A DNA stretch of 64,000 nt from Saccoglossus kowalevskii (lineage: Eukaryota > Hemichordata > Enteropneusta > Harrimaniidae): NCBI RefSeq assembly GCF_000003605.2, contig NW_003146267.1, forward strand, positions 1 through 64,000. The letters are read 5' to 3'. The position numbers were made by a program, and so were the translations under genes. Below the pieces are notes generated by a model, which saw only the letters and a list, made by a program, of their open reading frames with translations, made no database searches and was not told the origin of the DNA. Shown here piece by piece: positions 1 to 64,000 of the stretch (its first letter is position 1; every line of letters starts with the position of its first letter).

Positions 1-61
1 TATATTTCATGACATTTACGATAAACTGGACTATCATACAAGTTGCATTTTGCAGAATGTC

Positions 62-133
62 AGCAGCGTGGCGCAGCGGAAGCGTGCTGGGCCCATAACC
101 CAGAGGTCCCTGGATCGAAACCAGGCGCTGCTA
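62..133 (+). tRNA. tRNA-iMet-CAT: tRNA-iMet(CAT), unit 1
   Basis: Same 72 bases as the unit 5 reference. Upstream spacer lacks one T, and the flank reads GCATTTTGC as in unit 8. Confidence 0.95.
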
Positions 134-327
134 TGAAATTGAAGTTTTAAACCGTTAATTCTCGAACAACCTGTTGCTCCGAGTTATGTGCCTTAAAAGT
201 TTCCTTTATTAATCCGGAACATTCGTGATTCGCAATCTGCCAAGCGTAACAAATTATGAATGACGAGTAAGTAGGTTGGCAATAACAATAATTATTAACT
301 GGCGCAAAATTTGAGTTGCAAGTAACT

Positions 328-454
328 GTCAGGATGGCCGAGCGGTCTAAGGCGCCAGACTCAAGGATTTGACACCTTGCCCTTATTTCAGGGTTATTTA
401 TGGGATATTTCTGGTCCACGAATGTGGGCGTGGGTTCGAATCCCACTTCTGACA
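328..454 (+). tRNA. tRNA-Leu-CAA: tRNA-Leu(CAA) with intron, unit 1
   Basis: Reference exons. Intron 3' part reads GGGATAT, shared with units 7, 8 and 107. Confidence 0.95.
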
Positions 455-664
455 ATGTTATTTTACCTTTAGTAACTTAGCAAATTCTCGCCTAGTTTGT
501 GCTCGATATGACATTTAATTATCTTCGTGTTTAGTCGTGATTCAACATTGACAGTAGTTTCGTTTAGTTTCAATTTACAAATACTGAACCGAGATTACGC
601 GTTATATTTCATGACATTTACGATAAACTGGACTATTCATACAAGTTGCATATTGCAGAATGTC

Positions 665-735
665 AGCAGCGTGGCGCAGCGGAAGCGTGCTGGGCCCATA
701 ACCCAGAGGTCCCTGGATCGAAACAGGCGCTGCTA
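665..735 (+). pseudogene. tRNA-iMet-CAT: tRNA-iMet(CAT), 1-nt loss in T arm, unit 2
   Basis: 71 nt: one C is missing from the 3' strand of the T stem, so the stem is out of register and the B box is altered. Probably non-functional unless the loss is a sequencing error. Confidence 0.75.
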
Positions 736-929
736 TGAAATTGAAGTTTTAAACCGTTAATTCTCGAACAACCTGTTGCTCCGAGTTATGTGCCTTAAAA
801 GTTTGCTTTATTAATCCGGAACATTCGTGATTCGCAATCTGCCAAGCGTAACAAATTATGAATGACGAGTAAGTAGGTTGGCAATAACAATAATTATTAA
901 CTGGCGCAAAATTTGAGTTGCAAGTAACT

Positions 930-1042
930 GTCAGGATGGCCGAGCGGTCTAAGGATTTGACACCTTGCCCTTATTTCAGGGTTATTTATGGGAGATTTCT
1001 GGTCCACGAATGTGGGCGTGGGTTCGAATCCCACTTCTGACA
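930..1042 (+). pseudogene. tRNA-Leu lacking anticodon arm, unit 2
   Basis: 14 bp between two AAGG words are gone, removing the 5' anticodon stem and the CAA anticodon. The same deletion occurs in unit 42. Confidence 0.9.
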
Positions 1043-1252
1043 ATGTTATTTTACCTTTAGTAACTTAGCAAATTCTCGCCTAGTTTGTGCTCGATATGAC
1101 ATTTAATTATCTTCGTGTTTAGTCGTGATTCAACATTGACAGTAGTTTCGTTTAGTTTCAATTTACAAATACTGAACCGAGATTACGCATTATATTTCAT
1201 GACATTTACGATAAACTGGACTATTCATACAAGTTGCATATTGAAGAATGTC

Positions 1253-1303
1253 AGCAGCGTGGCGCAGCGGAATCGTGCTGGGCCCATAACCCAGAGGTCC
1301 CTG
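1253..1303 (+). pseudogene. tRNA-iMet truncated at 51 nt, unit 3
   Basis: Ends inside the 5' T stem; the rest of the gene and part of spacer A (about 104 bp) are deleted, so no B box. Carries T at base 21 (position 22), the mark of the degenerate initiator subfamily. Confidence 0.92.
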
Positions 1304-1414
1304 AAACATTAGTGATTCGCAATCTGCCAAGCGTAACAAATTATGAATGACTAGTAAGTAGGTTGGCAATAACAATAATTATTAACTGGCGCAAAATTTG
1401 AGTTGCAAGTAACT

Positions 1415-1541
1415 GTCAGGATGGCCGAGCGGTCTAAGGCGCCAGACTCAAGGATTTGACACCTTGCCCTTATTTCAGGGTTATTTATGGGAGATTTCTG
1501 GTCCACGAATGTGGGCGTGGGTTCGAATCCCACTTCTGACA
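1415..1541 (+). tRNA. tRNA-Leu-CAA: tRNA-Leu(CAA) with intron, unit 3
   Basis: Reference exons and intron. Now only 111 nt after the truncated initiator. Confidence 0.95.
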
Positions 1542-1751
1542 ATGTTATTTTACCTTTAGTAACTTAGCAAATTCTCGCCTAGTTTGTGCTCGATATGACA
1601 TTTAATTATCTTCGTGTTTAGTCGTGATTCAACATTGACAGTAGTTTCGTTTAGTTTCAATTTACAAATACTGAACCGAGATTACGCATTATATTTCATG
1701 ACATTTACGATAAACTGGACTATTCATACAAGTTGCATATTGCAGAATGTC

Positions 1752-1823
1752 AGCAGCGTGGCGCAGCGGAAGCGTGCTGGGCCCATAACCCAGAGGTCCG
1801 TGGATCGAAACCAGGCGCTGCTA
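1752..1823 (+). tRNA. tRNA-iMet-CAT: tRNA-iMet(CAT), T-stem mismatch, unit 4
   Basis: C50 to G gives a G:G mismatch in the T stem; otherwise the reference sequence. Confidence 0.88.
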
Positions 1824-2017
1824 TGAAATTGAAGTTTTAAACCGTTAATTCTCGAACAACCTGTTGCTCCGAGTTATGTGCCTTAAAAGTTTGCTTTATT
1901 AATCCGGAACATTCGTGATTCGCAATCTGCCAAGCGTAACAAATTATGAATGACGAGTAAGTAGGTTGGCAATAACAATAATTATTAACTGGCGCAAAAT
2001 TTGAGTTGCAAGTAACT

Positions 2018-2144
2018 GTCAGGATGGCCGAGCGGTCTAAGGCGCCAGACTCAAGGATTTGACACCTTGCCCTTATTTCAGGGTTATTTATGGGAGATTT
2101 CTGGTCCACGAATGTGGGCGTGGGTTCGAATCCCACTTCTGACA
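2018..2144 (+). tRNA. tRNA-Leu-CAA: tRNA-Leu(CAA) with intron, unit 4
   Basis: Reference exons and intron. Confidence 0.95.
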
Positions 2145-2361
2145 ATGTTATTTTACCTTTAGTAACTTAGCAAATTCTCACCTAGTTTGTGCTCGATATG
2201 ACATTTAATTATCTTCGTGTTTAGTCGTGATTCAACATTGACAGTAGTTTCGTTTAGTTTCAATTTACAAATACTGAACCGAGATTACGCATTATATTTC
2301 ATGACATTTACGATAAACTGGACTATTCATACAAGTTGCATATTGCAGAATGTCAGCAGCG

Positions 2362-2372
2362 TGGCGCAGCGG
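2362..2372 (+). promoter_or_regulatory. A box of tRNA-iMet (reference unit 5)
   Basis: TGGCGCAGCGG at gene bases 8-18 matches the Pol III internal A box (TRGCNNAGYNGG-like) and covers the D arm. Confidence 0.85.
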
Positions 2373-2404
2373 AAGCGTGCTGGGCCCATAACCCAGAGGT
2401 CCCT

Positions 2405-2415
2405 GGATCGAAACC
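2405..2415 (+). promoter_or_regulatory. B box of tRNA-iMet (reference unit 5)
   Basis: GGATCGAAACC at gene bases 51-61 is the initiator form of the Pol III B box, with A in place of the first T of GGTTCGANNCC. Confidence 0.85.
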
Positions 2416-2437
2416 AGGCGCTGCTATGAAATTGAAG

Positions 2438-2441
2438 TTTT
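2438..2441 (+). terminator. Pol III terminator of tRNA-iMet (reference unit 5)
   Basis: TTTT begins 12 nt after the gene end. Units with the other spacer form have five Ts at the same place, for example 11308-11312. Confidence 0.75.
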
Positions 2442-2579
2442 AAACCGTTAATTCTCGAACAACCTGTTGCTCCGAGTTATGTGCCTTAAAAGTTTGCTTT
2501 ATTAATCCGGAACATTCGTGATTCGCAATCTGCCAAGCGTAACAAATTATGAATGACGAGTAAGTAGGTTGGCAATAAC

Positions 2580-2589
2580 AATAATTATT
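2580..2589. promoter_or_regulatory. AT-rich palindrome upstream of tRNA-Leu (reference unit 5)
   Basis: AATAATTATT is a perfect 10-bp palindrome 32-41 nt before the Leu start and is present in nearly every unit. Its place suggests a TATA-like upstream aid to TFIIIB, but all spacer bases are equally conserved, so conservation gives no support by itself. Confidence 0.3.
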
Positions 2590-2627
2590 AACTGGCGCAA
2601 AATTTGAGTTGCAAGTAACTGTCAGGA

Positions 2628-2638
2628 TGGCCGAGCGG
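2628..2638 (+). promoter_or_regulatory. A box of tRNA-Leu (reference unit 5)
   Basis: TGGCCGAGCGG at gene bases 8-18 fits the Pol III A box. Confidence 0.85.
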
Positions 2639-2725
2639 TCTAAGGCGCCAGACTCAAGGATTTGACACCTTGCCCTTATTTCAGGGTTATTTATGGGAGA
2701 TTTCTGGTCCACGAATGTGGGCGTG

Positions 2726-2736
2726 GGTTCGAATCC
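2726..2736 (+). promoter_or_regulatory. B box of tRNA-Leu (reference unit 5)
   Basis: GGTTCGAATCC is a perfect Pol III B box over the T arm. Confidence 0.9.
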
Positions 2737-2747
2737 CACTTCTGACA

Positions 2748-2956
2748 ATGTTATTTTACCTTTAGTAACTTAGCAAATTCTCGCCTAGTTTGTGCTCGAT
2801 ATGACATTTAATTATCTTCGTGTTTAGTCGTGATTCAACATTGACAGTAGTTTCGTTTAGTTTCAATTTACAAATACTGAACCGAGATTACGCATTATAT
2901 TTCATGACATTTACGATAAACTGGACTATTCATACATTTGCATATTGCAGAATGTC
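2748..2956. other. Spacer B (Leu to next iMet), reference copy in unit 5
   Basis: About 210 nt from the Leu 3' end to the next initiator. It holds the Leu terminator T-run, then AT-rich sequence with a TTATATTT block about 60 nt before the next gene. An open frame starts at a GTG here and runs through the initiator gene in many units, but it has no recognisable protein features and is an artefact of the repeat. Confidence 0.8.
2754..2757 (+). terminator. Pol III terminator of tRNA-Leu (reference unit 5)
   Basis: TTTT begins 7 nt after the discriminator base and is kept in almost all units. Confidence 0.8.
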
Positions 2957-3028
2957 AGCAGCGTGGCGCAGCGGAATCGTGCTGGGCCTATAACCCAGAG
3001 GTCCCTGAATCGAAATCAGACCCTGCTA
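2957..3028 (+). tRNA. tRNA-iMet-like with anticodon TAT, degenerate subfamily, unit 6
   Basis: C34 to T (2989) changes the anticodon to TAT at 2989-2991. It belongs to the degenerate subfamily: position 22 is T, the T stem is CCTGA, and the 3' acceptor strand CCCTGCT leaves a C6:C67 mismatch. An extra T at position 61 restores one T-stem pair. Probably not a working tRNA. Confidence 0.7.
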
Positions 3029-3222
3029 TGAAATTCAAGTTTTTAACCGTTAATTCTCAAACAACCTGTTGCTGCGAGTTATGTGCCTTAAAAGTTTGCT
3101 TTATTCATCCGAAACATTCGTGATTCGCAATCTGCCAAGCGCAACAAATTAAGAATGACGAGTAAGTAGGTTGGCAATAACAATAATTATTAACTGGCGC
3201 AAAATTTGAGTTGTAAGTCGCT

Positions 3223-3349
3223 GTCAGGATGGCCGAGCGGTCTAAGGCGCCAGATTCAAGGATTTGACACCTTGCCCTTATTTCAGGGTTATTTGTGGGA
3301 GATTTCTGGTCCACGAATGTGGGCGTGGGTTCGAATCCCACTTCTGACA
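3223..3349 (+). tRNA. tRNA-Leu-CAA: tRNA-Leu(CAA) with intron, unit 6
   Basis: C32 to T in the anticodon loop, harmless by itself. Flank GTCGCT and intron TTTGTGGG mark a subtype shared with units 12, 34, 72, 73, 90 and 99. Confidence 0.93.
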
Positions 3350-3559
3350 ATGTTATTTTACCTTTAGTAACTTAGCAAATTCTCGCCTAGTTTGTGCTCG
3401 ATATGACATTTAATTATCTTAGTGTTTAGTCGTGATTCAACATTGACAGTAGTTTCGTTTAGTTTCAATTTACAAATACTGAACCGAGATTACGCATTAT
3501 ATTTCATGACATTTACGATAAACTGGACTATTCATACAAGTTGCATACTGCAGAATGTC

Positions 3560-3631
3560 AGCAGCGTGGCGCAGCGGAAGCGTGCTGGGCCCATAACCCA
3601 GAGGTTCCTGGATCGAAACCAGGCGCTGCTA
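3560..3631 (+). tRNA. tRNA-iMet-CAT: tRNA-iMet(CAT), unit 7
   Basis: C48 to T, weakening the G15:C48 tertiary pair; otherwise reference. Confidence 0.92.
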
Positions 3632-3825
3632 TGAAATTGAAGTTTTTAACCGTTAATTCTCAAACAACCTGTTGCTGCGAGTTATGTGCCTTAAAAGTTT
3701 GCTTTATTCATCCGGAACATTAGTGATTCGCAATCTGCCAAGCGTAACAAATTATGAATGACGAGTAAGTAGGTTGGCAATAACAATAATTATTAACTGG
3801 CGCAAAATTTGAGTTGCAAGTAACT

Positions 3826-3952
3826 GTCAGGATGGCCGAGCGGTCTAAGGCGCCAGACTCAAGGATTTGACACCTTGCCCTTATTTCAGGGTTATTTATG
3901 GGATATTTCTGGTCCACGAATGTGGGCGTGGGTTCGAATCCCACTTCTGACA
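3826..3952 (+). tRNA. tRNA-Leu-CAA: tRNA-Leu(CAA) with intron, unit 7
   Basis: Reference exons, GGGATAT intron form. Confidence 0.95.
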
Positions 3953-4162
3953 ATGTTATTTTACCTTTAGTAACTTAGCAAATTCTCGCCTAGTTTGTGC
4001 TCGATATGACATTTAATTATCTTCGTGTTTAGTCGTGATTCAACATTGACAGTAGTTTCGTTTAGTTTCAATTTACAAATACTGAACCGAGATTACGCAT
4101 TATATTTCATGACATTTACGATAAACTGGACTATTCATACAAGTTGCATTTTGCAGAATGTC

Positions 4163-4234
4163 AGCAGCGTGGCGCAGCGGAAGCGTGCTGGGCCCATAAC
4201 CCAGAGGTCCCTGGATCGAAACCAGGCGCTGCTA
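4163..4234 (+). tRNA. tRNA-iMet-CAT: tRNA-iMet(CAT), unit 8
   Basis: Same as reference. Flanks match unit 1. Confidence 0.95.
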
Positions 4235-4428
4235 TGAAATTGAAGTTTTAAACCGTTAATTCTCGAACAACCTGTTGCTCCGAGTTATGTGCCTTAAAAG
4301 TTTCCTTTATTAATCCGGAACATTCGTGATTCGCAATCTGCCAAGCGTAACAAATTATGAATGACAAGTAAGTAGGTTGGCAATAACAATAATTATTAAC
4401 TGGCGCAAAATTTGAGTTGCAAGTAACT

Positions 4429-4555
4429 GTCAGGATGGCCGAGCGGTCTAAGGCGCCAGACTCAAGGATTTGACACCTTGCCCTTATTTCAGGGTTATTT
4501 ATGGGATATTTCTGGTCCACGAATGTGGGCGTGGGTTCGAATCCCACTTCTGACA
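4429..4555 (+). tRNA. tRNA-Leu-CAA: tRNA-Leu(CAA) with intron, unit 8
   Basis: Reference exons, GGGATAT intron form as in unit 1. Confidence 0.95.
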
Positions 4556-4765
4556 ATGTTATTTTACCTTTAGTAACTTAGCAAATTCTCGCCTAGTTTG
4601 TGCTCGATATGACATTTAATTATCTTCGTGTTTAGTCGTGATTCAACATTGACAGTAGTTTCGTTTAGTTTCAATTTACAAATACTGAACCGAGATTACG
4701 CGTTATATTTCATGACATTTACGATAAACTGGACTATTCATACAAGTTGCATATTGCAGAATGTC

Positions 4766-4822
4766 AGCAGCGTGGCGCAGCCCATAACCCAGAGGTCCCT
4801 GGATCGAAACCAGGCGCTGCTA
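4766..4822 (+). pseudogene. tRNA-iMet with 15-nt internal loss, unit 9
   Basis: 15 bases from the D loop to the 5' anticodon stem are deleted, so the D arm and anticodon stem cannot form. The identical deletion is in unit 24. Confidence 0.92.
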
Positions 4823-5016
4823 TGAAATTGAAGTTTTAAACCGTTAATTCTCGAACAACCTGTTGCTCCGAGTTATGTGCCTTAAAAGTTTGCTTTATTA
4901 ATCCGGAACATTCGTGATTCGCAATCTGCCAAGCGTAACAAATTATTAATGACGAGTAAGTAGGTTGGCAATAACAATAATTATTAACTGGCGCAAAATT
5001 TGAGTTGCAAGTAACT

Positions 5017-5143
5017 GTCAGGATGGCCGAGCGGTCTAAGGCGCCAGACTCAAGGATTTGACACCTTGCCCTTATTTCAGGGTTATTTATGGGAGATTTC
5101 TGGTCCACGAATGTGGGCGTGGGTTCGAATCCCACTTCTGACA
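5017..5143 (+). tRNA. tRNA-Leu-CAA: tRNA-Leu(CAA) with intron, unit 9
   Basis: Reference sequence. Upstream ATTATTAATG variant is shared only with unit 24. Confidence 0.95.
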
Positions 5144-5957: not shown

Positions 5958-6029
5958 AGCAGCGTGGCGCAGCGGAATCGTGCAGGGCCCATAACCCAGA
6001 GGTCCCTGAATCGAAACCAGACCCTGCTA
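5958..6029 (+). tRNA. tRNA-iMet-like(CAT), degenerate subfamily, unit 11
   Basis: Position 22 T, T stem CCTGA, acceptor 3' strand CCCTGCT, plus T28 to A in the anticodon stem (CAGGG). Several mispairs; likely a pseudogene. Confidence 0.7.
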
Positions 6030-6223
6030 TGAAATTCAAGTTTTTAACCGTTAATTCTCAAACAACCTGTTGCTGCGAGTTATGTGCCTTAAAAGTTTGC
6101 TTTATTAATCCGGAACATTCGTGATTCGCAATCTGCCTAGCGTAACAAATTATGAATGACGAGTAAGTAGGTTGGCAATAACAATAATTATTAACTGGCG
6201 CAAAATTTGAGTTGCAAGTAACT

Positions 6224-6350
6224 GTCAGGATGGCCGAGCGGTCTAAGGCGCCAGACTCAAGGATTTGACACCTTGCCCTTATTTCAGGGTTATTTATGGG
6301 AGATTTCTGGTCCACGAATGTGGGCTTGGGTTCGAATCCCACTTCTGACA
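6224..6350 (+). tRNA. tRNA-Leu-CAA: tRNA-Leu(CAA) with intron, unit 11
   Basis: G49 to T at the base of the T stem; rest reference. Confidence 0.92.
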
Positions 6351-6560
6351 ATGTTATTTTACCTTTAGTAACTTAGCAAATTCTCGCCTAGTTTGTGCTC
6401 GATATGACATTTAATTATCTTCGTGTTTAGTCGTGATTCAACATTGACAGTAGTTTCGTTTAGTTTCAATTTACAAATACTGAACCGAGATTACGCATTA
6501 TATTTCATGACATTTACGATAAACTGGACTATTCATACAAGTTGCATATTGCAGAATATC

Positions 6561-6632
6561 AGCAGCGTGGCGCAGCGGAATCGTGCTGGCCCCATAACCC
6601 AGAGGTCCCTGAATCGAAACCAGACCCTGCTA
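6561..6632 (+). tRNA. tRNA-iMet-like(CAT), degenerate subfamily, unit 12
   Basis: Subfamily marks as in unit 11, with G31 to C breaking the closing pair of the anticodon stem instead. Confidence 0.7.
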
Positions 6633-6826
6633 TGAAATTCAAGTTTTTAACCGTTAATTCTCAAACAACCTGTTGCTGCGAGTTATGTGCCTTAAAAGTT
6701 TGCTTTATTCATCCGAAACATTCGTTATTCGCAATCTGCCAAGCGCAACAAATTAAGAATGACGAGTAAGTAGGTTGGCAATAACAATAATTATTAACTG
6801 GCGCAAAATTTGAGTTGTAAGTCGCT

Positions 6827-6953
6827 GTCAGGATGGCCGAGCGGTCTAAGGCGCCAGATTCAAGGATTTGACACCTTGCCCTTATTTCAGGGTTATTTGT
6901 GGGAGATTTCTGGTCCACGAATGTGGGCATGGGTTCGAATCCCACTTCTGACA
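6827..6953 (+). tRNA. tRNA-Leu-CAA: tRNA-Leu(CAA) with intron, unit 12
   Basis: C32 to T and G49 to A (A:C at the base of the T stem). Confidence 0.9.
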
Positions 6954-7163
6954 ATGTTATTTTACCTTTAGTAACTTAGCAAATTCTCGCCTAGTTTGTG
7001 CTCGATATGACATTTAATTATCTTAGTGTTTAGTCGTGATTCAACATTGACAGTAGTTTCGTTTAGTTTCAATTTACAAATACTGAACCGAGATTACGCA
7101 TTATATTTCATGACATTTACGATAAACTGGACTATTCATACAAGTTGCATACTGCAGAATGTC

Positions 7164-7227
7164 AGCAGCGTGTCGCAGCGGAAGCGTGCTGGGCCCATAA
7201 CCCATGGATCGAAACCAGGCGCTGCTA
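7164..7227 (+). pseudogene. tRNA-iMet with 8-nt loss, unit 13
   Basis: Eight bases covering the variable region and 5' T stem are missing, and G10 is T. The unit also lacks its Leu gene, so it holds no intact tRNA gene. Confidence 0.9.
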
Positions 7228-7624
7228 TGAAATTGAAGTTTTTAACCGTTAATTCTCAAACAACCTGTTGCTGCGAGTTAAGTGCCTTAAAAGTTTGCTT
7301 TATTCATCCGGAACATTCGTGATTCGCAATCTGCCAAGCGTTAGAAATTATAAATGACGAGTAAGTAGGTTGGCAATAACAATAATTATTAACTGGCGCA
7401 AAATTTGAGTTGCAAGTAACTTAGTAACTTAGTAACTTAGCAAATTCTCGCCTAGTTTGTGCTCGATATGACATTTAATTATCTTGGTGTTCTGTCGAGA
7501 TTCAACATTGACAGTAGTTTCGTTTAGTTTCAATTTACAAATACTGAACCGAGATTACGCATTATATTTCATGACATTTACGATAAACTGAACTATTCAT
7601 ACAAGTTGCATATTGCAGAATGTC
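7228..7624. other. Gene-free interval in unit 13 (Leu gene lost)
   Basis: About 400 nt of joined spacer A and spacer B with no gene. At 7415-7440 TAACTTAG-type words repeat where the Leu gene should lie. GTAACT occurs on both sides of the Leu gene in other units, so a slip or crossover between those copies explains the loss of about 134 bp. Confidence 0.9.
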
Positions 7625-14826: not shown

Positions 14827-14877
14827 AGCAGCGTGGCGCAGCGGAATCGTGCTGGGCCCATAACCCAGAGGTCCCTG
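14827..14877 (+). pseudogene. tRNA-iMet truncated at 51 nt, unit 26
   Basis: Same breakpoints as unit 3; no T arm or 3' acceptor strand. Confidence 0.92.
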
Positions 14878-14988
14878 AAACATTAGTGATTCGCAATCTG
14901 CCAAGCGTAACAAATTATGAATGACTAGTAAGTAGGTTGGCAATAACAATAATTATTAACTGGCGCAAAATTTGAGTTGCAAGTAACT

Positions 14989-15115
14989 GTCAGGATGGCC
15001 GTGCGGTCTAAGGCGCCAGACCCAAGGATTTGACACCTTGCCCTTATTTCAGGGTTATTTATGGGAGATTTCTGGTCCACGAATGTGGGCGTGGGTTCGA
15101 ATCCCACTTCTGACA
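14989..15115 (+). tRNA. tRNA-Leu-CAA: tRNA-Leu(CAA) with C33, unit 26
   Basis: T33 to C removes the near-universal U-turn base before the anticodon, and one A-box base is changed (CCGTGCGG). Function doubtful. Confidence 0.82.
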
Positions 15116-15325
15116 ATGTTATTTTACCTTTAGTAACTTAGCAAATTCTCGCCTAGTTTGTGCTCGATATGACATTTAATTTTCTTCGTGTTTAGTCGTG
15201 GTTCAACATTGACAGTAGTTTCGTTTAGTTTCAATTTACAAATACTGAACCGGAATTACGCATTGTATTTCATGACATTTACGATAAACTGGACTATTCA
15301 TACAAGTTGCGGATTGCAGAATGTC

Positions 15326-15928: not shown

Positions 15929-15979
15929 AGCAGCGTGGCGCAGCGGAATCGTGCTGGGCCCATAACCCAGAGGTCCCTG
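15929..15979 (+). pseudogene. tRNA-iMet truncated at 51 nt, unit 28
   Basis: Same breakpoints as units 3, 26 and 107. Confidence 0.92.
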
Positions 15980-16090
15980 AAACATTAGTAATTCGCAATC
16001 TGCCAAGCGTAACAAATTATGAATGACTAGTAAGTAGGTTGGCAATAACAATAATTATTAACTGGCGCAAAATTTGAGTTGCAAGTAACT

Positions 16091-16217
16091 GTCAGGATGG
16101 CCGAGCGGTCTAAGGCGCCAGACTCAAGGATTTGACACCTTGCCCTTATTTCAGGGTTATTTATGGGAGATTTCTGGTCCACGAATGTGGGCGGGGGTTC
16201 GAATCCCACTTCTGACA
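16091..16217 (+). tRNA. tRNA-Leu-CAA: tRNA-Leu(CAA) with intron, unit 28
   Basis: T50 to G gives a G:A mismatch in the T stem. Confidence 0.9.
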
Positions 16218-16428
16218 ATGTTATTTTACCTTTAGTAACTTAGCAAATTCTCGCCTAGTTTGTGCTCGGATATGACATTTAATTATCTTAGTGTTTAGTC
16301 GTGATTCAACATTGACAGTAGTTTCGATTAGTTTCAATTTACAAATACTGAACCGAGATTACGCATTATATTTCATGACATTTACGATAAACTGGACTAT
16401 TCATACAAGTTACATACTGCAGAATGTC

Positions 16429-18841: not shown

Positions 18842-18913
18842 AGCAGCGTGGCGCAGCGGAATCGTGCTGGGCCCATAACCCAGAGGTCCCTGAATCGAAA
18901 CCAGACCCTGCTA
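18842..18913 (+). tRNA. tRNA-iMet-like(CAT), degenerate subfamily, unit 33
   Basis: Type copy of the subfamily: T22, G53 to A, T-stem 3' CCAGA and acceptor 3' CCCTGCT with C6:C67. Four marks relative to the reference and no others. Confidence 0.75.
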
Positions 18914-19107
18914 TGAAATTCAAGTTTTTAACCGTTAATTCTCAAACAACCTGTTGCTGCGAGTTATGTGCCTTAAAAGTTTGCTTTATTCATCCGAAAC
19001 ATTCGTGATTCGCAATCTGCCAAGCGCAACAAATTAAGAATGACGAGTAAGTAGGTTGGCAATAACAATAATTATTAACTGGCGCAAAATTTGAGTTGTA
19101 AGTCGCT

Positions 19108-19234
19108 GTCAGGATGGCCGAGCGGTCTAAGGCGCCAGATTCAAGGATTTGACACCTTGCCCTTATTTCAGGGTTATTTATGGGAGATTTCTGGTCCACG
19201 AATGTGGGCGTGGGTTCGAATCCCACTTCTGATA
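19108..19234 (+). tRNA. tRNA-Leu-CAA: tRNA-Leu(CAA) with intron, unit 33
   Basis: C32 to T; C72 to T makes the end pair G1:U72. Confidence 0.9.
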
Positions 19235-19444
19235 ATGTTATTTTACCTTTAGTAACTTAGCAAATTCTCGCCTAGTTTGTGCTCGATATGACAATTAATT
19301 TTCTTCGTGTTTAGTCGTGATTCAACATTGACAGTAGTTTCGGTTAGTTTCAATTTACAAATACTGAACCGAGATTACGCATTATATTTCATGACATTTA
19401 CGATAAACTGGACTATTCATACAAGTTGCATATTGTAGAATGTC

Positions 19445-19516
19445 AGCAGCGTGGCGCAGCGGAATCGTGCTGGGCCCATAACCCAGAAGTCCCTGAATCG
19501 AAACCAGACCCTGCTA
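19445..19516 (+). tRNA. tRNA-iMet-like(CAT), degenerate subfamily, unit 34
   Basis: As unit 33 plus G45 to A. Confidence 0.72.
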
Positions 19517-19710
19517 TGAAATTCAAGTTTTTAACCGTTAATTCTCAAACAACCTGTTGCTGCGAGTTATGTGCCTTAAAAGTTTGCTTTATTCATCCGA
19601 AACATTCGTGATTCGCAATCTGCCAAGCGCAACAACTTAAGAATGACGAGTAAGTAGGTTGGCAATAACAATAATTATTAACTGGCGCAAAATTTGAGTT
19701 GTAAGTCGCT

Positions 19711-19837
19711 GTCAGGATGGCTGAGCGGTCTAAGGCAACAGATTCAAGGATTTGACCCCTTGCCCTTATTTCAGGGTTATTTGTGGGAGATTTCTGGTCC
19801 ACGAATGTGGGCGTGGGTTCGAATCCTACTTCTGACA
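19711..19837 (+). tRNA. tRNA-Leu-CAA: tRNA-Leu(CAA), several changes, unit 34
   Basis: D-arm C to T, GCGCC to GCAAC at the D/anticodon stem border, C32 to T and C63 to T. Doubtful function. Confidence 0.78.
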
Positions 19838-20036
19838 ATGTTATTTTACCTTTAGTAACTTAGCAAATTCTCGCCTAGTTTGTGCTCGATATGACATTTA
19901 ATTATCTTCGTGTTTAGTCGTGATTCAACATTGACAGTAGTTTCGTTTAGTTTCAATTTACCGAGATTACGCATTATATTTCATGACATTTACGATAAAC
20001 TGGACTATTCATACAAGTTGCATACAGCAGAATGTC

Positions 20037-26050: not shown

Positions 26051-26122
26051 AGCAGCGTGGCGCAGCGGAAGCGTGCTGGGCCCATAACCCAGAGGTCCCT
26101 GGATCGAAACCAGGCGCTGCTA
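26051..26122 (+). tRNA. tRNA-iMet-CAT: tRNA-iMet(CAT), unit 45
   Basis: Same as reference. Confidence 0.95.
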
Positions 26123-26316
26123 TGAAATTGAAGTTTTTAACCGTTAATTCTCAAACAACCTGTTGCTGCGAGTTATGTGCCTTAAAAGTTTGCTTTATTC
26201 ATCCGGAACATCCGTGATTCGCAATCTGCCAAGCGTAACAAATTATGAATGACGAGTAAGTAGGTTGGCAATAACAATAATTATTAACTGGCGCAAAATT
26301 TGAGTTGCAAGTAACT

Positions 26317-26443
26317 GTCAGGATGGCCGAGCGGTCTAAGGCGCCAGACTCAAGGATTTGACACCTTGCCCTTATTTCAGGGTTATTTATGGGAGATTTC
26401 TGGTCCACGAATGTGGGCGTGGGTTCGAATCCCACTTCTGACA
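26317..26443 (+). tRNA. tRNA-Leu-CAA: tRNA-Leu(CAA) with intron, unit 45
   Basis: Reference sequence. Confidence 0.95.
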
Positions 26444-26653
26444 ATGTTATTTTACCTTTAGTAACTTAGCAAATTCTCGCCTAGTTTGTGCTCGATATGA
26501 CATTTAATTATCTTCGTGTTTAGTCGTGATTCAACATTGACAGTAGTTTCGTTTAGTTTCAATTTACAAATACTGAACCGAGATTACGCATTATATTTCA
26601 TGACATTTACGATAAACTGGACTATTCATACAAGTTGCATATTGCAGAATGTC

Positions 26654-42269: not shown

Positions 42270-42339
42270 AGCAGCGTGGCGCAGCGGAAGCGTGCTGGGC
42301 CCATAACCCAGAGGTCCCTGTATCGAAACAGCGCTGCTA
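42270..42339 (+). pseudogene. tRNA-iMet-CAT: tRNA-iMet(CAT), 2-nt loss in T arm, unit 72
   Basis: Two bases of the 3' T stem are missing and G53 is T. The losses open the error-like stretch 42326-42412, so this copy may be intact in the real genome. Confidence 0.65.
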
Positions 42340-42412
42340 GAATGAAGTTTAAACCGTAATCTCGACACTGTGCTGCGAGTATGTGCTTAAAAGTCGCTTT
42401 ATCATCCGGAAC
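42326..42412. other. Dense single-base losses, likely low-quality consensus
   Basis: About 16 bases are missing as scattered single-base losses from the 3' end of the unit 72 initiator through spacer A, while the sequence on both sides is normal. The pattern fits an unpolished long-read segment or a junction of reads. Confidence 0.6.
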
Positions 42413-42519
42413 ATTAGTGATTCGCAATCTGCCAAGCGCAACAAATTAAGAATGACGAGTAAGTAGGTTGGCAATAACAATAATTATTAACTGGCGCAAA
42501 ATTTGAGTTGTAAGTCGCT

Positions 42520-42646
42520 GTCAGGATGGCCGAGCGGTCTAAGGCGCCAGATTCAAGGATTTGACACCTTGCCCTTATTTCAGGGTTATTTGTGGGAGAT
42601 TTCTGGTCCACGAATGTGGGCGTGGGTTCGAATCCCACTTCTGACA
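42520..42646 (+). tRNA. tRNA-Leu-CAA: tRNA-Leu(CAA) with intron, unit 72
   Basis: C32 to T with the GTCGCT flank subtype. Confidence 0.93.
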
Positions 42647-42856
42647 ATGTTATTTTACCTTTAGTAACTTAGCAAATTCTCGCCTAGTTTGTGCTCGATA
42701 TGACATTTAATTATCTTCGTGTTTAGTCGTGATTCAACATTGACAGTAGTTTCGTTTAGTTTCAATTTACAAATACTGAACCGAGATTACGCATTATATT
42801 TCATGACATTTACGATAAACTGGACTATTCATACAAGTTGCATACAGCAGAATGTC

Positions 42857-42928
42857 AGCAGCGTGGCGCAGCGGAAGCGTGCTGGGCCCATAACCCAGAG
42901 GTCCCTGGATCGAAACCAGGCGCTGCTA
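42857..42928 (+). tRNA. tRNA-iMet-CAT: tRNA-iMet(CAT), unit 73
   Basis: Same as reference. Confidence 0.95.
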
Positions 42929-43122
42929 TGAAATTGAAGTTTTTAACCGTTAATTCTCAAACAACCTGTTGCTGCGAGTTATGTGCCTTAAAAGTTTGCT
43001 TTATTCATCCGAAACATTCGTGATTCGCAATCTGCCAAGCGCAACAAATTAAGAATGACGAGTAAGTAGGTTGGCAATAACAATAATTATTAACTGGCGC
43101 AAAATATGAGTTGTAAGTCGCT

Positions 43123-43246
43123 GTCAGATGGCCGAGCGGTCTAAGCGCCAGATTCAAGGATTTGATACCTTGCTCTTATTTCAGGTTATTTGTGGGAGAT
43201 TTCTGGTCCACGAATGCGGGCGTGGGTTCGAATCCCACTTCTGACA
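43123..43246 (+). pseudogene. tRNA-Leu-CAA: tRNA-Leu(CAA) with three 1-nt losses, unit 73
   Basis: Single G losses in the acceptor (GGATGG), D stem (AAGGCG) and intron (CAGGG), plus C32 to T. All are in G runs, so consensus error is possible. Confidence 0.7.
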
Positions 43247-43455
43247 TGTTATTTTACCTTTAGTAACTTAGCAAATTCTCGCCTAGTTTGTGCTCGATAT
43301 GACATTTAATTATCTTCGCGTTTAGTCGTGATTCAACATTGACAGTAGTTTCGTTTAGTTTCAATTTACAAATACTGAACCGAGATTACGCATTATATTT
43401 CATGACATTTACGATAAACTGGACTATTCATACAAGTTGCATATTGCAGAATGTC

Positions 43456-58522: not shown

Positions 58523-58594
58523 AGCAGCGTGGCGCAGCGGAAGCGTGCTGGGACCATAACCCAGAGGTCCCTGGATCGAAACCAGGCGCTGCTA
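58523..58594 (+). tRNA. tRNA-iMet-CAT: tRNA-iMet(CAT), unit 99
   Basis: C32 to A, as in unit 10, 53 kb away. Confidence 0.92.
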
Positions 58595-58788: not shown

Positions 58789-58915
58789 GTCAGGATGGCC
58801 GAGCGGTCTAAGGCGCCAGATTCAAGGATTTGACACCTTGCCCTTATTTCAGGGTTATTTGTGGGAGATTTCTGGTCCACGAATGTGGGCGTGGGTTCGA
58901 ATCCCACTTCTGACA
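58789..58915 (+). tRNA. tRNA-Leu-CAA: tRNA-Leu(CAA) with intron, unit 99
   Basis: C32 to T, GTCGCT flank subtype. Confidence 0.93.
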
Positions 58916-59125
58916 ATGTTATTTTACCTTTAGTAACTTAGCAAATTCTCGCCTAGTTTGTGCTCGATATGACATTTAATTATCTTAGTGTTTAGTCGTG
59001 ATTCAACATTGACAGTAGTTTCGTTTAGTTTCAATTTACAAATACTGAACCGAGATTACGCATTATATTTCATGACATTTACGATAAACTGGACTATTCA
59101 TACAAGTTGCATACAGCAGAATGTC

Positions 59126-59197
59126 AGCAGCGTGGCGCAGCGGAAGCGTGCTGGGCCCATAACCCAGAGGTCCCTGGATCGAAACCAGGCGCTGCTA
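59126..59197 (+). tRNA. tRNA-iMet-CAT: tRNA-iMet(CAT), unit 100
   Basis: Same as reference; flank ACAGCAG as in units 35, 55, 73 and 101. Confidence 0.95.
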
Positions 59198-59391
59198 TGA
59201 AATTGAAGTTTTTAACCGTTAATTCTCAAACAACCTGTTGCTGCGAGTTATGTGCCTTAAAAGTTTGCTTTATTAATCCGGAACATTCCTGATTCGCAAT
59301 CTGCCAAGCGTAACAAATTATGAATGACGAGTAAGTAGGTTGGCAATAACAATAATTATTAACTGGCGCAAAATTTGAGTTGCAAGTAACT

Positions 59392-59518
59392 GTCAGGATG
59401 GCCGAGCGGTCTAAGGCGCCAGACTCAAGGATTTGACACCTTGCCCTTATTTCAGGGTTATTTATGGGAGATTTCTGGTCCACGAATGTGGGCGTGGGTT
59501 CGAATCCCACTTCTGACA
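59392..59518 (+). tRNA. tRNA-Leu-CAA: tRNA-Leu(CAA) with intron, unit 100
   Basis: Reference sequence. Confidence 0.95.
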
Positions 59519-59728
59519 ATGTTATTTTACCTTTAGTAACTTAGCAAATTCTCGCCTAGTTTGTGCTCGATATGACATTTAATTATCTTCGTGTTTAGTC
59601 GTGATTCAACATTGACAGTAGTTTCGTTTAGTTTCAATTTACAAATACTGAACCGAGATTACGCATTATATTTCATGACATTTACGATAAACTGGACTAT
59701 TCATACAAGTTGCATACAGCAGAATGTC

Positions 59729-59800
59729 AGCAGCGTGGCGCAGCGGAAGCGTGCTGGGCCCATAACCCAGAGGTCCCTGGATCAAAACCAGGCGCTGCTA
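59729..59800 (+). tRNA. tRNA-iMet-CAT: tRNA-iMet(CAT), unit 101
   Basis: G57 to A. Confidence 0.93.
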
Positions 59801-59993
59801 TGAAATTGAAGTTTTTAACTGTTAATTCTCAAACAACCTGTTGCTGCGTGTTATGTGCCTTAAAAGTTTGCTTTATTAATCCGGAACATTCGTGATTCGC
59901 AATCTGCAAGCGTAACAAATTATGAATGACGAGTAAGTATGTTGGCAATAACAATAATTATTAACTGGCGCAAAATTTGAGTTTCAAGTAACT

Positions 59994-60120
59994 GTCAGGA
60001 TGGCCGAGCGGTCTAAGGCGCCAGACTCAAGGATTTGACACCTTGCCCTTATTTCAGGGTTATTTATGGGAGATTTCTGGTCCACGAATGTGGGCGTGGG
60101 TTCGAATCCCACTTCTGACA
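59994..60120 (+). tRNA. tRNA-Leu-CAA: tRNA-Leu(CAA) with intron, unit 101
   Basis: Reference sequence; spacer before it lacks one C. Confidence 0.95.
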
Positions 60121-60330
60121 ATGTTATTTTACCTTTAGTAACTTAGCAAATTCTCGCCTAGTTTGTGCTCGATATGACATTTAATTATCTTCGTGTTTAG
60201 TCGTGATTCAACATTGACAGTAATTTCGTTTAGTTTCAATTTACAAATACTGAACCGAGATTACGCATTATATTTCATAACATTTACGATAAACTGGACT
60301 ATTCATACAAGTTGCATACTGCAGAATGTC

Positions 60331-60402
60331 AGCAGCGTGGCGCAGCGGAAGCGTGCTGGGCCCATAACCCAGAGGTCCCTGTATCGAAACCAGGCGCTGC
60401 TA
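60331..60402 (+). tRNA. tRNA-iMet-CAT: tRNA-iMet(CAT), unit 102
   Basis: G53 to T. Confidence 0.9.
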
Positions 60403-60596
60403 TGAAATTGAAGTTTTTAACCGTTAATTCTCAAACAACCTGTTGCTGCGAGTTATGTGCCTTAAAAGTTTGCTTTATTCATCCGGAACATCCGTGATTC
60501 GCAAAATGCCAAGCGTAACAAATTATAAATGACGAGTAAGTAGGTTGGCAATAACAATAATTATTAACTGGCGCAAAATTTGAGTTGCAAGTAACT

Positions 60597-60723
60597 GTCA
60601 GGATGGCCGAGCGGTCTAAGGCGCTAGACTCAAGGATTTGACACCTTGCCCTTATTTCAGGGTTATTTATGGGAGATTTCTGGTCCACGAATGTGGGCGT
60701 GGGTTCGAATCCCACTTCTGACA
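60597..60723 (+). tRNA. tRNA-Leu-CAA: tRNA-Leu(CAA) with intron, unit 102
   Basis: C28 to T (U:G in the anticodon stem). Confidence 0.93.
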
Positions 60724-60933
60724 ATGTTATTTTACCTTTAGTAACTTAGCAAATTCTCGCCTAGTTTGTGCTCGATATGACATTTAATTATCTTCGTGTT
60801 TAGTCGTGATTCAACATTGACAGTAGTTTCGTTTAGTTTCAATTTACAAATACTGAACCGAGATTACGCATTATATTTCATGACATTTACGATAAACTGG
60901 ACTATTCATACAAGTTGCATACTGCAGAATGTC

Positions 60934-61005
60934 AGCAGCGTGGCGCAGCGGAAGCGTGCTGGGCCCATAACCCAGAGGTCCCTGTATCGAAACCAGGCGC
61001 TGCTA
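60934..61005 (+). tRNA. tRNA-iMet-CAT: tRNA-iMet(CAT), unit 103
   Basis: G53 to T. Confidence 0.9.
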
Positions 61006-61199
61006 TGAAATTGAAGTTTTTAACCGTTAATTCTCAAACAACCTGTTGCTGCGAGTTATGTGCCTTAAAAGTTTGCTTTATTCATCCGGAACATCCGTGA
61101 TTCGCAAAATGCCAAGCGTAACAAATTATAAATGACGAGTAAGTAGGTTGGCAATAACAATAATTATTAACTGGCGCAAAATTTGAGTTGCAAGTAACT

Positions 61200-61325
61200 G
61201 CCAGGATGGCCGAGCGGACTAAGGCGCCAGACTCAAGGATTTGACACTTGCCCTTATTTCAGGGTTATTTATGGGAGATTTCTGGTCCACGAATGTGGGC
61301 GTGGGTTCGAATCCCACTTCTGACA
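61200..61325 (+). tRNA. tRNA-Leu-CAA: tRNA-Leu(CAA) with intron, unit 103
   Basis: T2 to C (C2:A71 mismatch), one D-loop T to A, intron one base shorter. Confidence 0.87.
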
Positions 61326-61535
61326 ATGTTATTTTACCTTTAGTAATTTAGCAAATTCTCGCCTAGTTTGTGCTCGATATGACATTTAATTATCTTCGTG
61401 TTTAGTCGTGATTCAACATTGACAGTAGTTTCGTTTAGTTTCAATTTACAAATACTGAACCGAGATTACGCATTATATTTCATGACATTTACGATAAACA
61501 GGACTATTCATACAAGTTGCATATTGCAGAATGTC

Positions 61536-61607
61536 AGCAGCGTGGCGCAGCGGAAGCGTGCTGGGCCAATAACCCAGAGGTCCCTGGATCGAAACCAGGC
61601 GCTGCTA
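61536..61607 (+). tRNA. tRNA-iMet-like with anticodon AAT, unit 104
   Basis: C34 to A at 61568 is the only change from the reference, giving anticodon AAT (61568-61570) in an otherwise perfect initiator with A1:U72, GGG/CCC, A54 and both Pol III boxes. It would read AUU, or AUU/AUC/AUA if A34 is edited to inosine. Which synthetase would charge it is unknown; MetRS depends strongly on CAU. Confidence 0.9.
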
Positions 61608-61801
61608 TGAAATTGAAGTTTTAAACCGTTAATTCTCGAACAACCTGTTGCTCCGAGTTATGTCCCTTAAAAGTTTGCTTTATTAATCCGGAACATTCGT
61701 GATTCGCAATCTGCCAAGCGTAACAAATTATGAATGACGAGTAAGTAGGTTGGCAATAACAATAATTATTAACTGGCGCAAAATTTGAGTTGCAAGTAAC
61801 T

Positions 61802-61928
61802 GTCAGGATGGCCGAGCGGTCTAAGGCGCCAGACTCAAGGATTTGACACCTTGCCCTTATTTCAGGGTTATTTATGGGAGATTTCTGGTCCACGAATGTG
61901 GGCGTGGGTTCGAATCCCACTTCTGACA
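61802..61928 (+). tRNA. tRNA-Leu-CAA: tRNA-Leu(CAA) with intron, unit 104
   Basis: Reference sequence. Confidence 0.95.
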
Positions 61929-62138
61929 ATGTTATTTTACCTTTAGTAACTTAGCAAATTCTCGCCTAGTTTGTGCTCGATATGACATTTAATTATCTTC
62001 GTGTTTAGTCGTGATTCAACATTGACAGTAGTTTCGTTTAGTTTCAATTTACAAATACTGAACCGAGATTACGCGTTATATTTCATGACATTTACGATAA
62101 ACTGGACTATTCATACAAGTTGCATATTGCAGAATGTC

Positions 62139-62210
62139 AGCAGCGTGGCGCAGCGGAAGCGTGCTGGGCCCATAACCCAGAGGTCCCTGGATCGAAACCA
62201 GGCGCTGCTA
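62139..62210 (+). tRNA. tRNA-iMet-CAT: tRNA-iMet(CAT), unit 105
   Basis: Same as reference. Confidence 0.95.
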
Positions 62211-62404
62211 TGAAATTGAAGTTTTAAACCGTTAATTCTCGAACAACCTGTTGCTCCGAGTTATGTGCCTTAAAAGTTTGCTTTATTAATCCGGAACATT
62301 CGTGATTCGCAATCTGCCAAGCGTAACAAATTATGAATGACGAGTAAGTAGGTTGGCAATAACAATAATTATTAACTGGCGCAAAATTTAAGTTGCAAGT
62401 AACA

Positions 62405-62531
62405 GTCAGGATGGCCGAGCGGTCTAAGGCGCCAGACTCAAGGATTTGACACCTTGCCCTTATTTCAGGGTTATTTATGGGAGATTTCTGGTCCACGAAT
62501 GTGGGCGTGGGTTCGAATCCCACTTCTGACA
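62405..62531 (+). tRNA. tRNA-Leu-CAA: tRNA-Leu(CAA) with intron, unit 105
   Basis: Reference sequence; flank reads AACAGTC. Confidence 0.95.
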
Positions 62532-62741
62532 ATGTTATTTTACCTTTAGTAACTTAGCAAATTCTCGCCTAGTTTGTGCTCGATATGACATTTAATTATC
62601 TTCGTGTTTAGTCGTGATTCAACATTGACAGTAGTTTCGTTTAGTTTCAATTTACAAATACTGAACCGAGATTACGCATTATATTTCATGACATTTACGA
62701 TAAACTGGACTATTCATACAAGTTGCATATTGCAGAATGTC

Positions 62742-62813
62742 AGCAGCGTGGCGCAGCGGAATCGTGCTGGGCCTACAACCCAGAGGTCCCTGAATCGAAA
62801 CCAGACCCTGCTA
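62742..62813 (+). tRNA. tRNA-iMet-like with anticodon TAC, degenerate subfamily, unit 106
   Basis: C34 to T and T36 to C give anticodon TAC (62774-62776), complementary to GUA. Carries all marks of the degenerate subfamily (compare unit 33). Shares T34 with unit 6, so one probably derives from the other. Likely inactive. Confidence 0.72.
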
Positions 62814-63007
62814 TGAAATTCAAGTTTTTAACCGTTAATTCTCAAACAACCTGTTGCTGCGAGTTATGTGCCTTAAAAGTTTGCTTTATTCATCCGAAAC
62901 ATTCGTGATTCGCAATCTGCCAAGCGCAACAAATTAAGAATGACGAGTAAGTAGGTTGGCAATAACAATAATTATTAACTGGCGCAAAATTTGAGTTGTA
63001 AGTCGCT

Positions 63008-63134
63008 GTCAGGATGGCCGAGCGGTCTAAGGCGCCAGATTCAAGGATTTGACACCTTGCCCTTATTTCAGGGTTATTTATGGGAGATTTCTGGTCCACG
63101 AATGTGGGCGTGGGTTCGAATCCCACTTCTGACA
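63008..63134 (+). tRNA. tRNA-Leu-CAA: tRNA-Leu(CAA) with intron, unit 106
   Basis: C32 to T. Confidence 0.93.
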
Positions 63135-63344
63135 ATGTTATTTTACCTTTAGTAACTTAGCAAATTCTCGCCTAGTTTGTGCTCGATATGACATTTAATT
63201 ATCTTCGTGTTTAGTCGTGATTCAACATTGACAGTAGTTTCGTTTAGTTTCAATTTACAAATACTGAACCGAGATTACGCATTATATTTCATGACATTTA
63301 CGATAAACTGGACTATTCATACAAGTTGCATACTGCAGAATGTC

Positions 63345-63395
63345 AGCAGCGTGGCGCAGCGGAAGCGTGCTGGGCCCATAACCCAGAGGTCCCTG
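63345..63395 (+). pseudogene. tRNA-iMet truncated at 51 nt, unit 107
   Basis: Same breakpoints as units 3, 26 and 28, but with G22 of the main form upstream of the break: recombination has swapped the 5' part. Confidence 0.92.
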
Positions 63396-63506
63396 AAACA
63401 TTAGTGATTCGCAATCTGCCAAGCATAACAAATTATGAATGACTAGTAAGTAGGTTGGCAATAACAATAATTATTAACTGGCGCAAAATTTGAGTTGCAT
63501 GTAACT

Positions 63507-63633
63507 GTCAGGATGGCCGAGCGGTCTAAGGCGCCAGACTCAAGGATTTGACACCTTGCCCTTATTTCAGGGTTATTTATGGGATATTTCTGGTCCACGA
63601 ATGTGGGCGTGGGTTCGAATCCCACTTCTGACA
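63507..63633 (+). tRNA. tRNA-Leu-CAA: tRNA-Leu(CAA) with intron, unit 107
   Basis: Reference exons, GGGATAT intron form. Confidence 0.95.
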
Positions 63634-63843
63634 ATGTTATTTTACCTTTAGTAACTTAGCAAATTCTCGCCTAGTTTGTGCTCGATATGACATTTAATTA
63701 TCTTCGTGTTCAGTCGAGATTCAACATTGACAGTAGTTTCGTTTAGTTTCAATTTACAAATACTGAACCGAGATTACGCATTATATTTCATGACATTTAC
63801 GATAAACTGGACTATTCATACAAGTTGCATATTGCAGAATGTC

Positions 63844-63915
63844 AGCAGCGTGGCGCAGCGGAAGCGTGCTGGGCCCATAACCCAGAGGTCCCTGGATCGA
63901 AACCAGGCGCTGCTA
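63844..63915 (+). tRNA. tRNA-iMet-CAT: tRNA-iMet(CAT), unit 108
   Basis: Same as reference. The window ends inside the spacer that follows, so its Leu partner is not seen. Confidence 0.95.
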
Positions 63916-64000
63916 TGAAATTGAAGTTTTTAACCGTTAATTCTCAAACAACCTGTTGCTGCGAGTAATGTGCCTTAAAAGTTTGCTTTATTCATCCGGA

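What the first reader, a model, noticed from the sequence alone, without database searches (positions are those of the whole stretch)
1..64000. Two-gene tRNA satellite: over 100 head-to-tail iMet + Leu(CAA) units
Seen: 108 initiator and 106 Leu loci with nothing else in 64 kb, and no array edge. Known: tandem tDNA repeats exist (Xenopus 3.18-kb unit, Entamoeba arrays), but a compact unit pairing only the initiator with one leucine tRNA at this scale is not one I recognise. Inference: it may boost start-tRNA supply at some stage, or be a satellite that captured two genes.
Basis: partly seen in the sequence, partly recalled or inferred. Interest (0 to 1): 0.85.

Follow-up and report, generated by a model that had tools for sequence, protein, structure and literature searches.

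The report
Tandem start-tRNA and leucine-tRNA gene array
This stretch of a eukaryotic genome is one 603-letter unit repeated head to tail, each copy carrying a start tRNA gene and a leucine tRNA gene; it is a large, real member of a known kind of tRNA gene array.

Summary
The window is 107 units of about 603 bp plus two cut ends, on one strand: initiator tRNA-Met(CAT) and intron-bearing tRNA-Leu(CAA), nothing else. It is the start of an 80.9-kb contig that is all array; a second contig (61.2 kb) is also all array. A third carries the 3' edge, with decayed units passing into unique DNA.

Best reading: a tandem tRNA gene array homogenised by unequal crossing-over, with many broken copies but a functional consensus. 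The array iMet equals, over 72 nt, genes elsewhere in the genome with unrelated flanks. Against two dispersed paralogues, 4 of 4 iMet and 4 of 6 Leu differences form compensated stem pairs. Stems are intact in 139 of 239 iMet and 163 of 237 Leu copies.

Transcription was not tested. Selection within the array shows weakly for Leu, not for iMet. Dispersed copies of both tRNAs and a second, different tRNA array lie in the same genome. Published precedents (Arabidopsis, Nematostella, zebrafish, Entamoeba) make it a new member of a known kind. A low-variation AT-rich block upstream of Leu is unexplained.

The parts
1..64000 (+). tandem array: 61-bp cut head, 107 units of about 603 bp, 157-bp cut tail
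   Evidence: wrap-around alignment; contig continues as array to its end at 80,859
26051..26653 (+). representative unit (unit 46; one difference from the consensus)
26051..26122 (+). initiator tRNA-Met(CAT), unit positions 1-72; A1:U71 end pair, GGG/CCC in the anticodon stem and ATCGAAA T loop, read as eukaryotic initiator hallmarks (recalled)
26134..26138 (+). Pol III-type T run after iMet (unit 84-88)
   Evidence: GTTTTTA in 82 and GTTTTAA in 19 of 109 pieces
26264..26294 (+). 31-bp low-variation AT-rich block (unit 214-244), -53 to -23 of Leu
   Evidence: identical in 107 of 107 window copies; weaker outside the window, 9 distinct variants against about 20 expected
26286..26309 (+). AACTGG-N11-AGTTGCA upstream of Leu (unit 236-259)
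   Evidence: post hoc motif
26317..26443 (+). tRNA-Leu(CAA) with intron (unit 267-393)
26355..26397 (+). 43-bp intron of tRNA-Leu, one base 3' of the anticodon (unit 305-347)
26450..26453 (+). Pol III-type TTTT after Leu (unit 400-403)
   Evidence: ATTTTA in 101 and GTTTTA in 4 of 109 pieces
26615..26639 (+). AACTGG-N12-AGTTGCA upstream of the next unit's iMet (unit 565-589)
   Evidence: post hoc motif
1253..1751 (+). 499-500-bp unit type lacking unit 51-154 (iMet 3' end and terminator lost); also 14827-15325, 15929-16428, 63345-63843
2957..3559 (+). member of a diverged unit lineage with iMet stem changes at 21, 52, 64 and 66 (unit 7 also has C60T, which re-pairs with 52); also 5958-6560, 6561-7163, 18842-19444, 19445-20036, 62742-63344
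7164..7624 (+). unit that has lost the Leu gene

Best explanation
It is a tandem array of tRNA genes in a eukaryotic nuclear genome. Each 603-bp unit holds two independent Pol III genes in the same direction: initiator tRNA-Met and intron-bearing tRNA-Leu(CAA). Each has internal A and B boxes and a T-run terminator; upstream of Leu lies an AT-rich, TATA-like block. Unequal crossing-over and gene conversion multiply and homogenise the units, so copies stay about 2.3% apart, carry a shared pool of variants, and decay at the edge. With so many copies, selection on any one copy is weak and many break, but selection keeps the common sequence functional (sign within the array in Leu only). Shown: anatomy, homogenisation, edge, compensated stems. 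Inferred: that the genes are transcribed and that the tRNAs are used. Not shown: that this pair, rather than others, is amplified because start or leucine tRNA is in demand.
For: Regular 603-bp units on one strand. Two all-array contigs share 190 distinct variants (C3681 has 337, C341 has 362) but no unit order beyond shuffled controls. Linkage between variants falls with distance, and neighbouring units are more alike. Edge units on C183 are 2.8%, 10.8% and 10.1% diverged before unique DNA. Boxes A and B and T runs are exact in most of the 109 pieces, lowest for iMet box B at 71. Array consensus iMet is 72/72 identical to genes on C848, C3574 and two copies on C2143; blastn at E 0.01 found no match of the unit's spacers there. 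Array versus two dispersed paralogues: iMet differs from the C285 gene at 4 sites forming 2 compensated pairs; Leu differs from the C4505 gene at 6 sites, 4 of them forming 2 compensated pairs. Leu exon variants reach 5 or more copies in 4 of 89, against 48 of 287 in spacer without the block, P=0.0025. More distinct variants lie in the transcribed parts, 1.06 against 0.75 per site with the block left out, P=1e-4, compatible with transcription-associated mutation (idea recalled; one search found no paper).
Against: No expression data. iMet shows no frequency effect (12 of 87 variants at 5 or more copies, P=0.62); the Leu exon effect is not significant against the Leu intron alone (5 of 39, P=0.13). 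Stem-breaking changes are not rarer than expected from the spacer (iMet 41 seen, 28.5 expected; Leu 45 and 31.4). The excess of variants in transcribed parts is P=0.06 for singletons alone. 39 of 241 pieces have neither gene with all stems, cut pieces counted as failing. Each paralogue comparison rests on one gene. The comparable Arabidopsis array is silent in most tissues (PMC12308677 abstract).
Confidence: 0.7

Rival explanations
1. A largely silent satellite: the tRNA genes were captured and amplified by recombination, and the array gives no useful tRNA; intact genes simply reflect recent amplification.
For: New mutations in the genes are not removed. iMet variants spread as freely as spacer variants. 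Dispersed intact copies of both tRNAs exist. The Arabidopsis array is silent in most tissues (PMC12308677 abstract).
Against: Compensated stem changes against dispersed genes. Leu exon variants spread less than spacer variants. CpG observed/expected in the unit is 1.09, and transitions were seen at 22 of 56 CpG positions against 56 of 193 other C or G positions, so no strong CpG decay. The transcribed part carries more distinct variants.
Confidence: 0.22
2. Assembly artefact: few real units expanded by the assembler.
For: The array contigs C3681 and C341 have no anchored flank themselves. One patch (about 42270-43455) is full of one- and two-base deletions like uncorrected reads. Two neighbouring unit pairs (42-43 and 45-46) show no substitution differences.
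Against: 302 distinct substitution variants in the window. Two contigs with the same variant pool but no shared unit order. An edge into unique sequence on C183. Repeated use of few reads should give long duplicated blocks; the longest found were five two-unit blocks, and 4 non-adjacent ones against a permuted mean of 1.2 and maximum of 7.
Confidence: 0.05
3. The array is kept for DNA or chromatin reasons (fork barrier, insulator, or a protein-bound block upstream of Leu), and tRNA output is secondary.
For: The 214-244 block varies less than the genes themselves. Its core ATAACAATAATTATTAAC is unchanged in an edge unit that is 10.8% diverged. Pausing of forks at yeast tRNA genes needs the assembled pre-initiation complex (PMC8194067, passages).
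Against: The strict invariance seen in the window did not hold outside it (9 distinct variants). In that same edge unit the block as a whole has 6 of 31 changes, more than the unit average, and a 4-base insertion lies beside it. Its position also fits an ordinary TBP/TFIIIB site. No chromatin data.
Confidence: 0.08

Closest known systems
Arabidopsis SYY cluster (tandem tRNA-Ser/Tyr/Tyr; PMC12308677 abstract, section 7 and passages; PMC11700998 passages)
   Same: Short unit carrying different tRNA isotypes, in tandem, with intron-bearing tRNA, broken copies (13 of 54 Tyr genes), variable flanking regions, and dispersed relatives
   Different: 27 repeats of Tyr-Tyr-Ser; plant; silenced with DNA methylation and expressed in root-tip cells, none of which was tested here
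Large tDNA clusters of Nematostella and teleost fishes (PMC2888827, sections 6 and 8, passages)
   Same: Clusters with 50 or more members in Nematostella and teleosts; mixed-isotype pairs prevail in Nematostella and zebrafish; nearly all zebrafish pairs run in parallel
   Different: No iMet-Leu(CAA) unit in the parts I read ('initiator' occurs 0 times in its main text); its supplements were not read
Entamoeba histolytica tRNA arrays (PMC6175992 passages)
   Same: 25 types of long tandem arrays with 1 to 5 tRNA types per unit
   Different: Entamoeba units contain short tandem repeats and tRNA genes make about 10% of the genome; in this window only one 26-bp short-period stretch was found (7415-7440)
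Xenopus laevis 3.18-kb tDNA repeat
   Same: Tandem repeat with several tRNA genes including iMet (recalled)
   Different: Much longer unit with more genes (recalled)
Second array in the same genome: contig C2143, 1,907-bp unit
   Same: Tandem; includes iMet, two copies identical to the array consensus
   Different: Also carries tRNA-Asn and genes called Pro(TGG) and Ser(ACT), on mixed strands; no match to the array Leu

Membership tests
Tandem eukaryotic tRNA gene array | head-to-tail units each carrying one or more tRNA genes | tested here: met
Tandem eukaryotic tRNA gene array | homogenised (concerted) units with decayed edge | tested here: met
   one edge only
Tandem eukaryotic tRNA gene array | genes with Pol III signals (A and B boxes, T run) | tested here: met
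   by sequence only
Tandem eukaryotic tRNA gene array | genes actually transcribed and used | not testable with these tools
   no RNA data
Non-genic satellite DNA | no sign of conserved gene function in the unit | tested here: not met
   compensated stems, identity with dispersed iMet, fewer spreading Leu variants; iMet alone shows no constraint within the array, and use is not shown
SINE-derived tandem repeat | tRNA-derived head joined to a retroposon body or tail, with dispersed copies | tested here: inconclusive
   both tRNAs are complete with own T runs and the spacers do not match the other iMet loci fetched; of 238 genome-wide matches to a spacer 31-mer, 237 are in the three array contigs and one is unplaced; no systematic search for dispersed copies

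The most novel reading that the evidence does not exclude
The array is a specialised, stage-regulated tRNA source in an animal-like genome (animal-like by recalled tRNA features), with its own initiator/Leu(CAA) pair and an array-specific Leu variant, comparable to the Arabidopsis SYY cluster but longer (135 units in one contig against 27); and the low-variation block upstream of Leu is a regulatory or amplification element more tightly kept than the tRNA genes.
Probability: 0.12. Interest if true: 0.65.

Novelty: new member of a known kind. Interest (0 to 1): 0.38.

Why it matters
Initiator tRNA level can limit translation (recalled). The two array contigs hold 176 of the 193 exact matches to the 21-base iMet anticodon arm in this assembly, so this is a natural place to ask whether tRNA satellites are expressed or only tolerated. 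The array Leu consensus differs from the one dispersed Leu(CAA) gene found at six positions, so ordinary tRNA-seq can separate them.

Tried and rejected
Pattern scans of viral contigs and genome contigs gave no related array. The one hit, L001, is a contig of the viral collection with 19 ARAGORN tRNAs of many kinds, read as phage, and was dropped. blastn of one unit against plasmid and phage records (81 and 217 records matched) found no record covering 80% of the unit; the 20 rows listed for each are short matches to the tRNA parts, the rest were not seen.

Local alignment of the two upstream regions was not significant (P=0.62). The spaced pair AACTGG/AGTTGCA was then tested separately: 8 of 1000 shuffles as good, and among 693 background window pairs only the 4 that contain these same two sites. 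It was chosen after looking at the sequence, so it is weak. In the diverged edge unit AACTGG before Leu reads AACAAG, and the dispersed Leu gene has no such pair in the upstream sequence fetched (read by eye). Whether the motif lies upstream of other tRNA genes genome-wide could not be searched.

The first claim, an invariant 31-bp block, is weakened by the independent sequence: outside the window (132 pieces) it has 9 distinct variants against about 20 expected, P=0.0013 at that fixed place but 0.25 if any place is allowed; over all 241 pieces P=0.005 for any place.

The pattern with a non-C base before iMet (0 matches) was badly designed: the other iMet genes seen also have C there. It is not evidence that the array is the only source. 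The organism was not identified. No clear higher-order repeat was seen. Papers seen but not used: cat flea genome (passages), Arabidopsis tRNA-Cys clusters (outline with abstract), frog genomes (passages).
Full report
WHAT IS THERE. The window divides into a 61-bp cut unit, 107 units and a 157-bp cut unit, all on the + strand, of a 603-bp consensus. Unit positions 1-72 are initiator tRNA-Met(CAT). Positions 267-393 are tRNA-Leu(CAA) with a 43-bp intron at 305-347. Of 108 iMet loci 102 read CAT; of 107 Leu positions 102 read CAA. iMet without indel or broken stem pair: 67 of 108; Leu: 74 of 107; both in the same unit: 49. Approximate patterns found no reverse-strand copies.

BEYOND THE WINDOW. 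The genome has 572,110,611 bases in 4,830 contigs and the window is the start of contig C3681. C3681 (80,859 bp) and C341 (61,167 bp) are array from end to end, 137 and 104 pieces, of which 135 and 102 are not cut by a contig end. A 31-base piece of the unit, with up to 3 mismatches, occurs 238 times in the genome, all in one orientation; 136 are on C3681, 100 on C341 and 1 on C183, so one is unplaced. C183 holds array units up to position 2469, preceded by unread letters, at 2.8%, 10.8% and 10.1% divergence, then unique DNA with reverse-transcriptase fragments. This is the 3' edge; the 5' edge was not found. The two array contigs share 190 variants, the frequent ones at similar frequencies, but no unit order beyond shuffled controls. 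They look like different parts of one long array (then at least 142 kb) or strongly rearranged haplotypes (then at least 81 kb).

HOW IT EVOLVES. Mean pairwise difference of window units is 2.33%. Adjacent units are slightly but clearly more alike (2.13%; 0 of 2000 permutations as low). Linkage between variants falls with distance, and 269 of 594 variant pairs show all four combinations. This is the pattern of unequal crossing-over with conversion.

ARE THE GENES USED? For: the array consensus iMet equals, over all 72 bases, genes on C848, C3574 and two copies on C2143, while the unit's spacers match nothing there (blastn, E 0.01). The iMet on C285 differs at 4 sites that form 2 compensated pairs. 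The stand-alone Leu(CAA) on C4505 differs at 6 sites, 4 of which form 2 compensated pairs in the variable arm. A and B boxes and T runs are exact in most pieces. Leu exon variants reach 5 or more copies in 4 of 89, against 48 of 287 spacer variants (P=0.0025), but against the intron alone (5 of 39) P=0.13. The transcribed parts carry more distinct variants (P=1e-4), though singletons alone give P=0.06. In the two diverged edge units genes have 15 changes in 227 sites and spacers, without the block, 56 in 466 (counts summed, not tested). Against: stem-breaking variants are not depleted, iMet shows no frequency effect (12 of 87, P=0.62), and over both contigs only 139 of 239 iMet and 163 of 237 Leu copies have no indel or broken pair, with 100 of 241 pieces keeping both. 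I read this as weak selection per copy and effective selection on the common form. Expression remains untested.

THE LOW-VARIATION BLOCK. Unit 214-244, 53 to 23 bases before Leu, has no variant in 107 window copies (0 of 5000 class-preserving permutations gave so long a run). Outside the window it has 9 distinct variants, against about 20 expected (P=0.0013 at the fixed place, 0.25 for any place). In one edge unit its core is unchanged, but the block as a whole has 6 of 31 changes. The position and the AT-rich core fit a TBP/TFIIIB site (from general knowledge). Why it should be kept better than the genes is unexplained.

OTHER COPIES. The 21-base iMet anticodon arm occurs 193 times in the genome, 176 of them in C3681 and C341. 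Of the other 17, ten are placed: C2143 six, C848 two, C285 one, C3574 one; seven were not listed. C2143 is itself a tandem array with a 1,907-bp unit that carries iMet, tRNA-Asn and genes called Pro(TGG) and Ser(ACT). A strict Leu(CAA) pattern that excludes the array's usual intron start matched two places, one a variant array unit and one outside the arrays, C4505; less similar Leu(CAA) genes would be missed.

KNOWN OR NEW. The Arabidopsis Ser-Tyr-Tyr cluster is the closest described system (PMC12308677, abstract, section 7 and passages; PMC11700998, passages). Large clusters are known in Nematostella and teleosts (PMC2888827, sections 6 and 8 and passages), and Entamoeba has 25 types of tRNA array (PMC6175992, passages). 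In my ten literature searches I saw no iMet-Leu(CAA) array among the listings and passages; the library lacks most subscription papers. I rate it a new member of a known kind.

Noticed in passing
window 42270-43455: Units 73 and 74 carry many small deletions (12 one- or two-base deletions between unit positions 61 and 148 in unit 73), like uncorrected long-read sequence.
   Followed up: partly
L032 and L033 (contig C2143, 1-13861): A second tandem tRNA array in the same genome, unit 1,907 bp, with iMet, tRNA-Asn and genes called Pro(TGG) and Ser(ACT) on mixed strands.
   Followed up: partly
L019, L023-L029 (contig C183): The flank beyond the array edge holds reverse-transcriptase fragments and a stop-to-stop open frame of 1,144 aa; the 1,052 aa of it that were scanned had no Pfam match above cut-off.
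   Followed up: partly
L031 (C848) 1573-1621: An iMet-like copy on C848 matches the array gene exactly for its first 49 bases and then departs; a 23-base, 91% match to the iMet 3' end lies at 3048-3070, relation unknown.
   Followed up: no
L031-L034: iMet genes outside the array on C848, C3574 and C2143 share their own upstream sequence, TTGCATCAG about 50 bases and TGCAYGT about 25 bases before the gene, unlike the array's; the C285 gene (L030) does not share it.
   Followed up: partly
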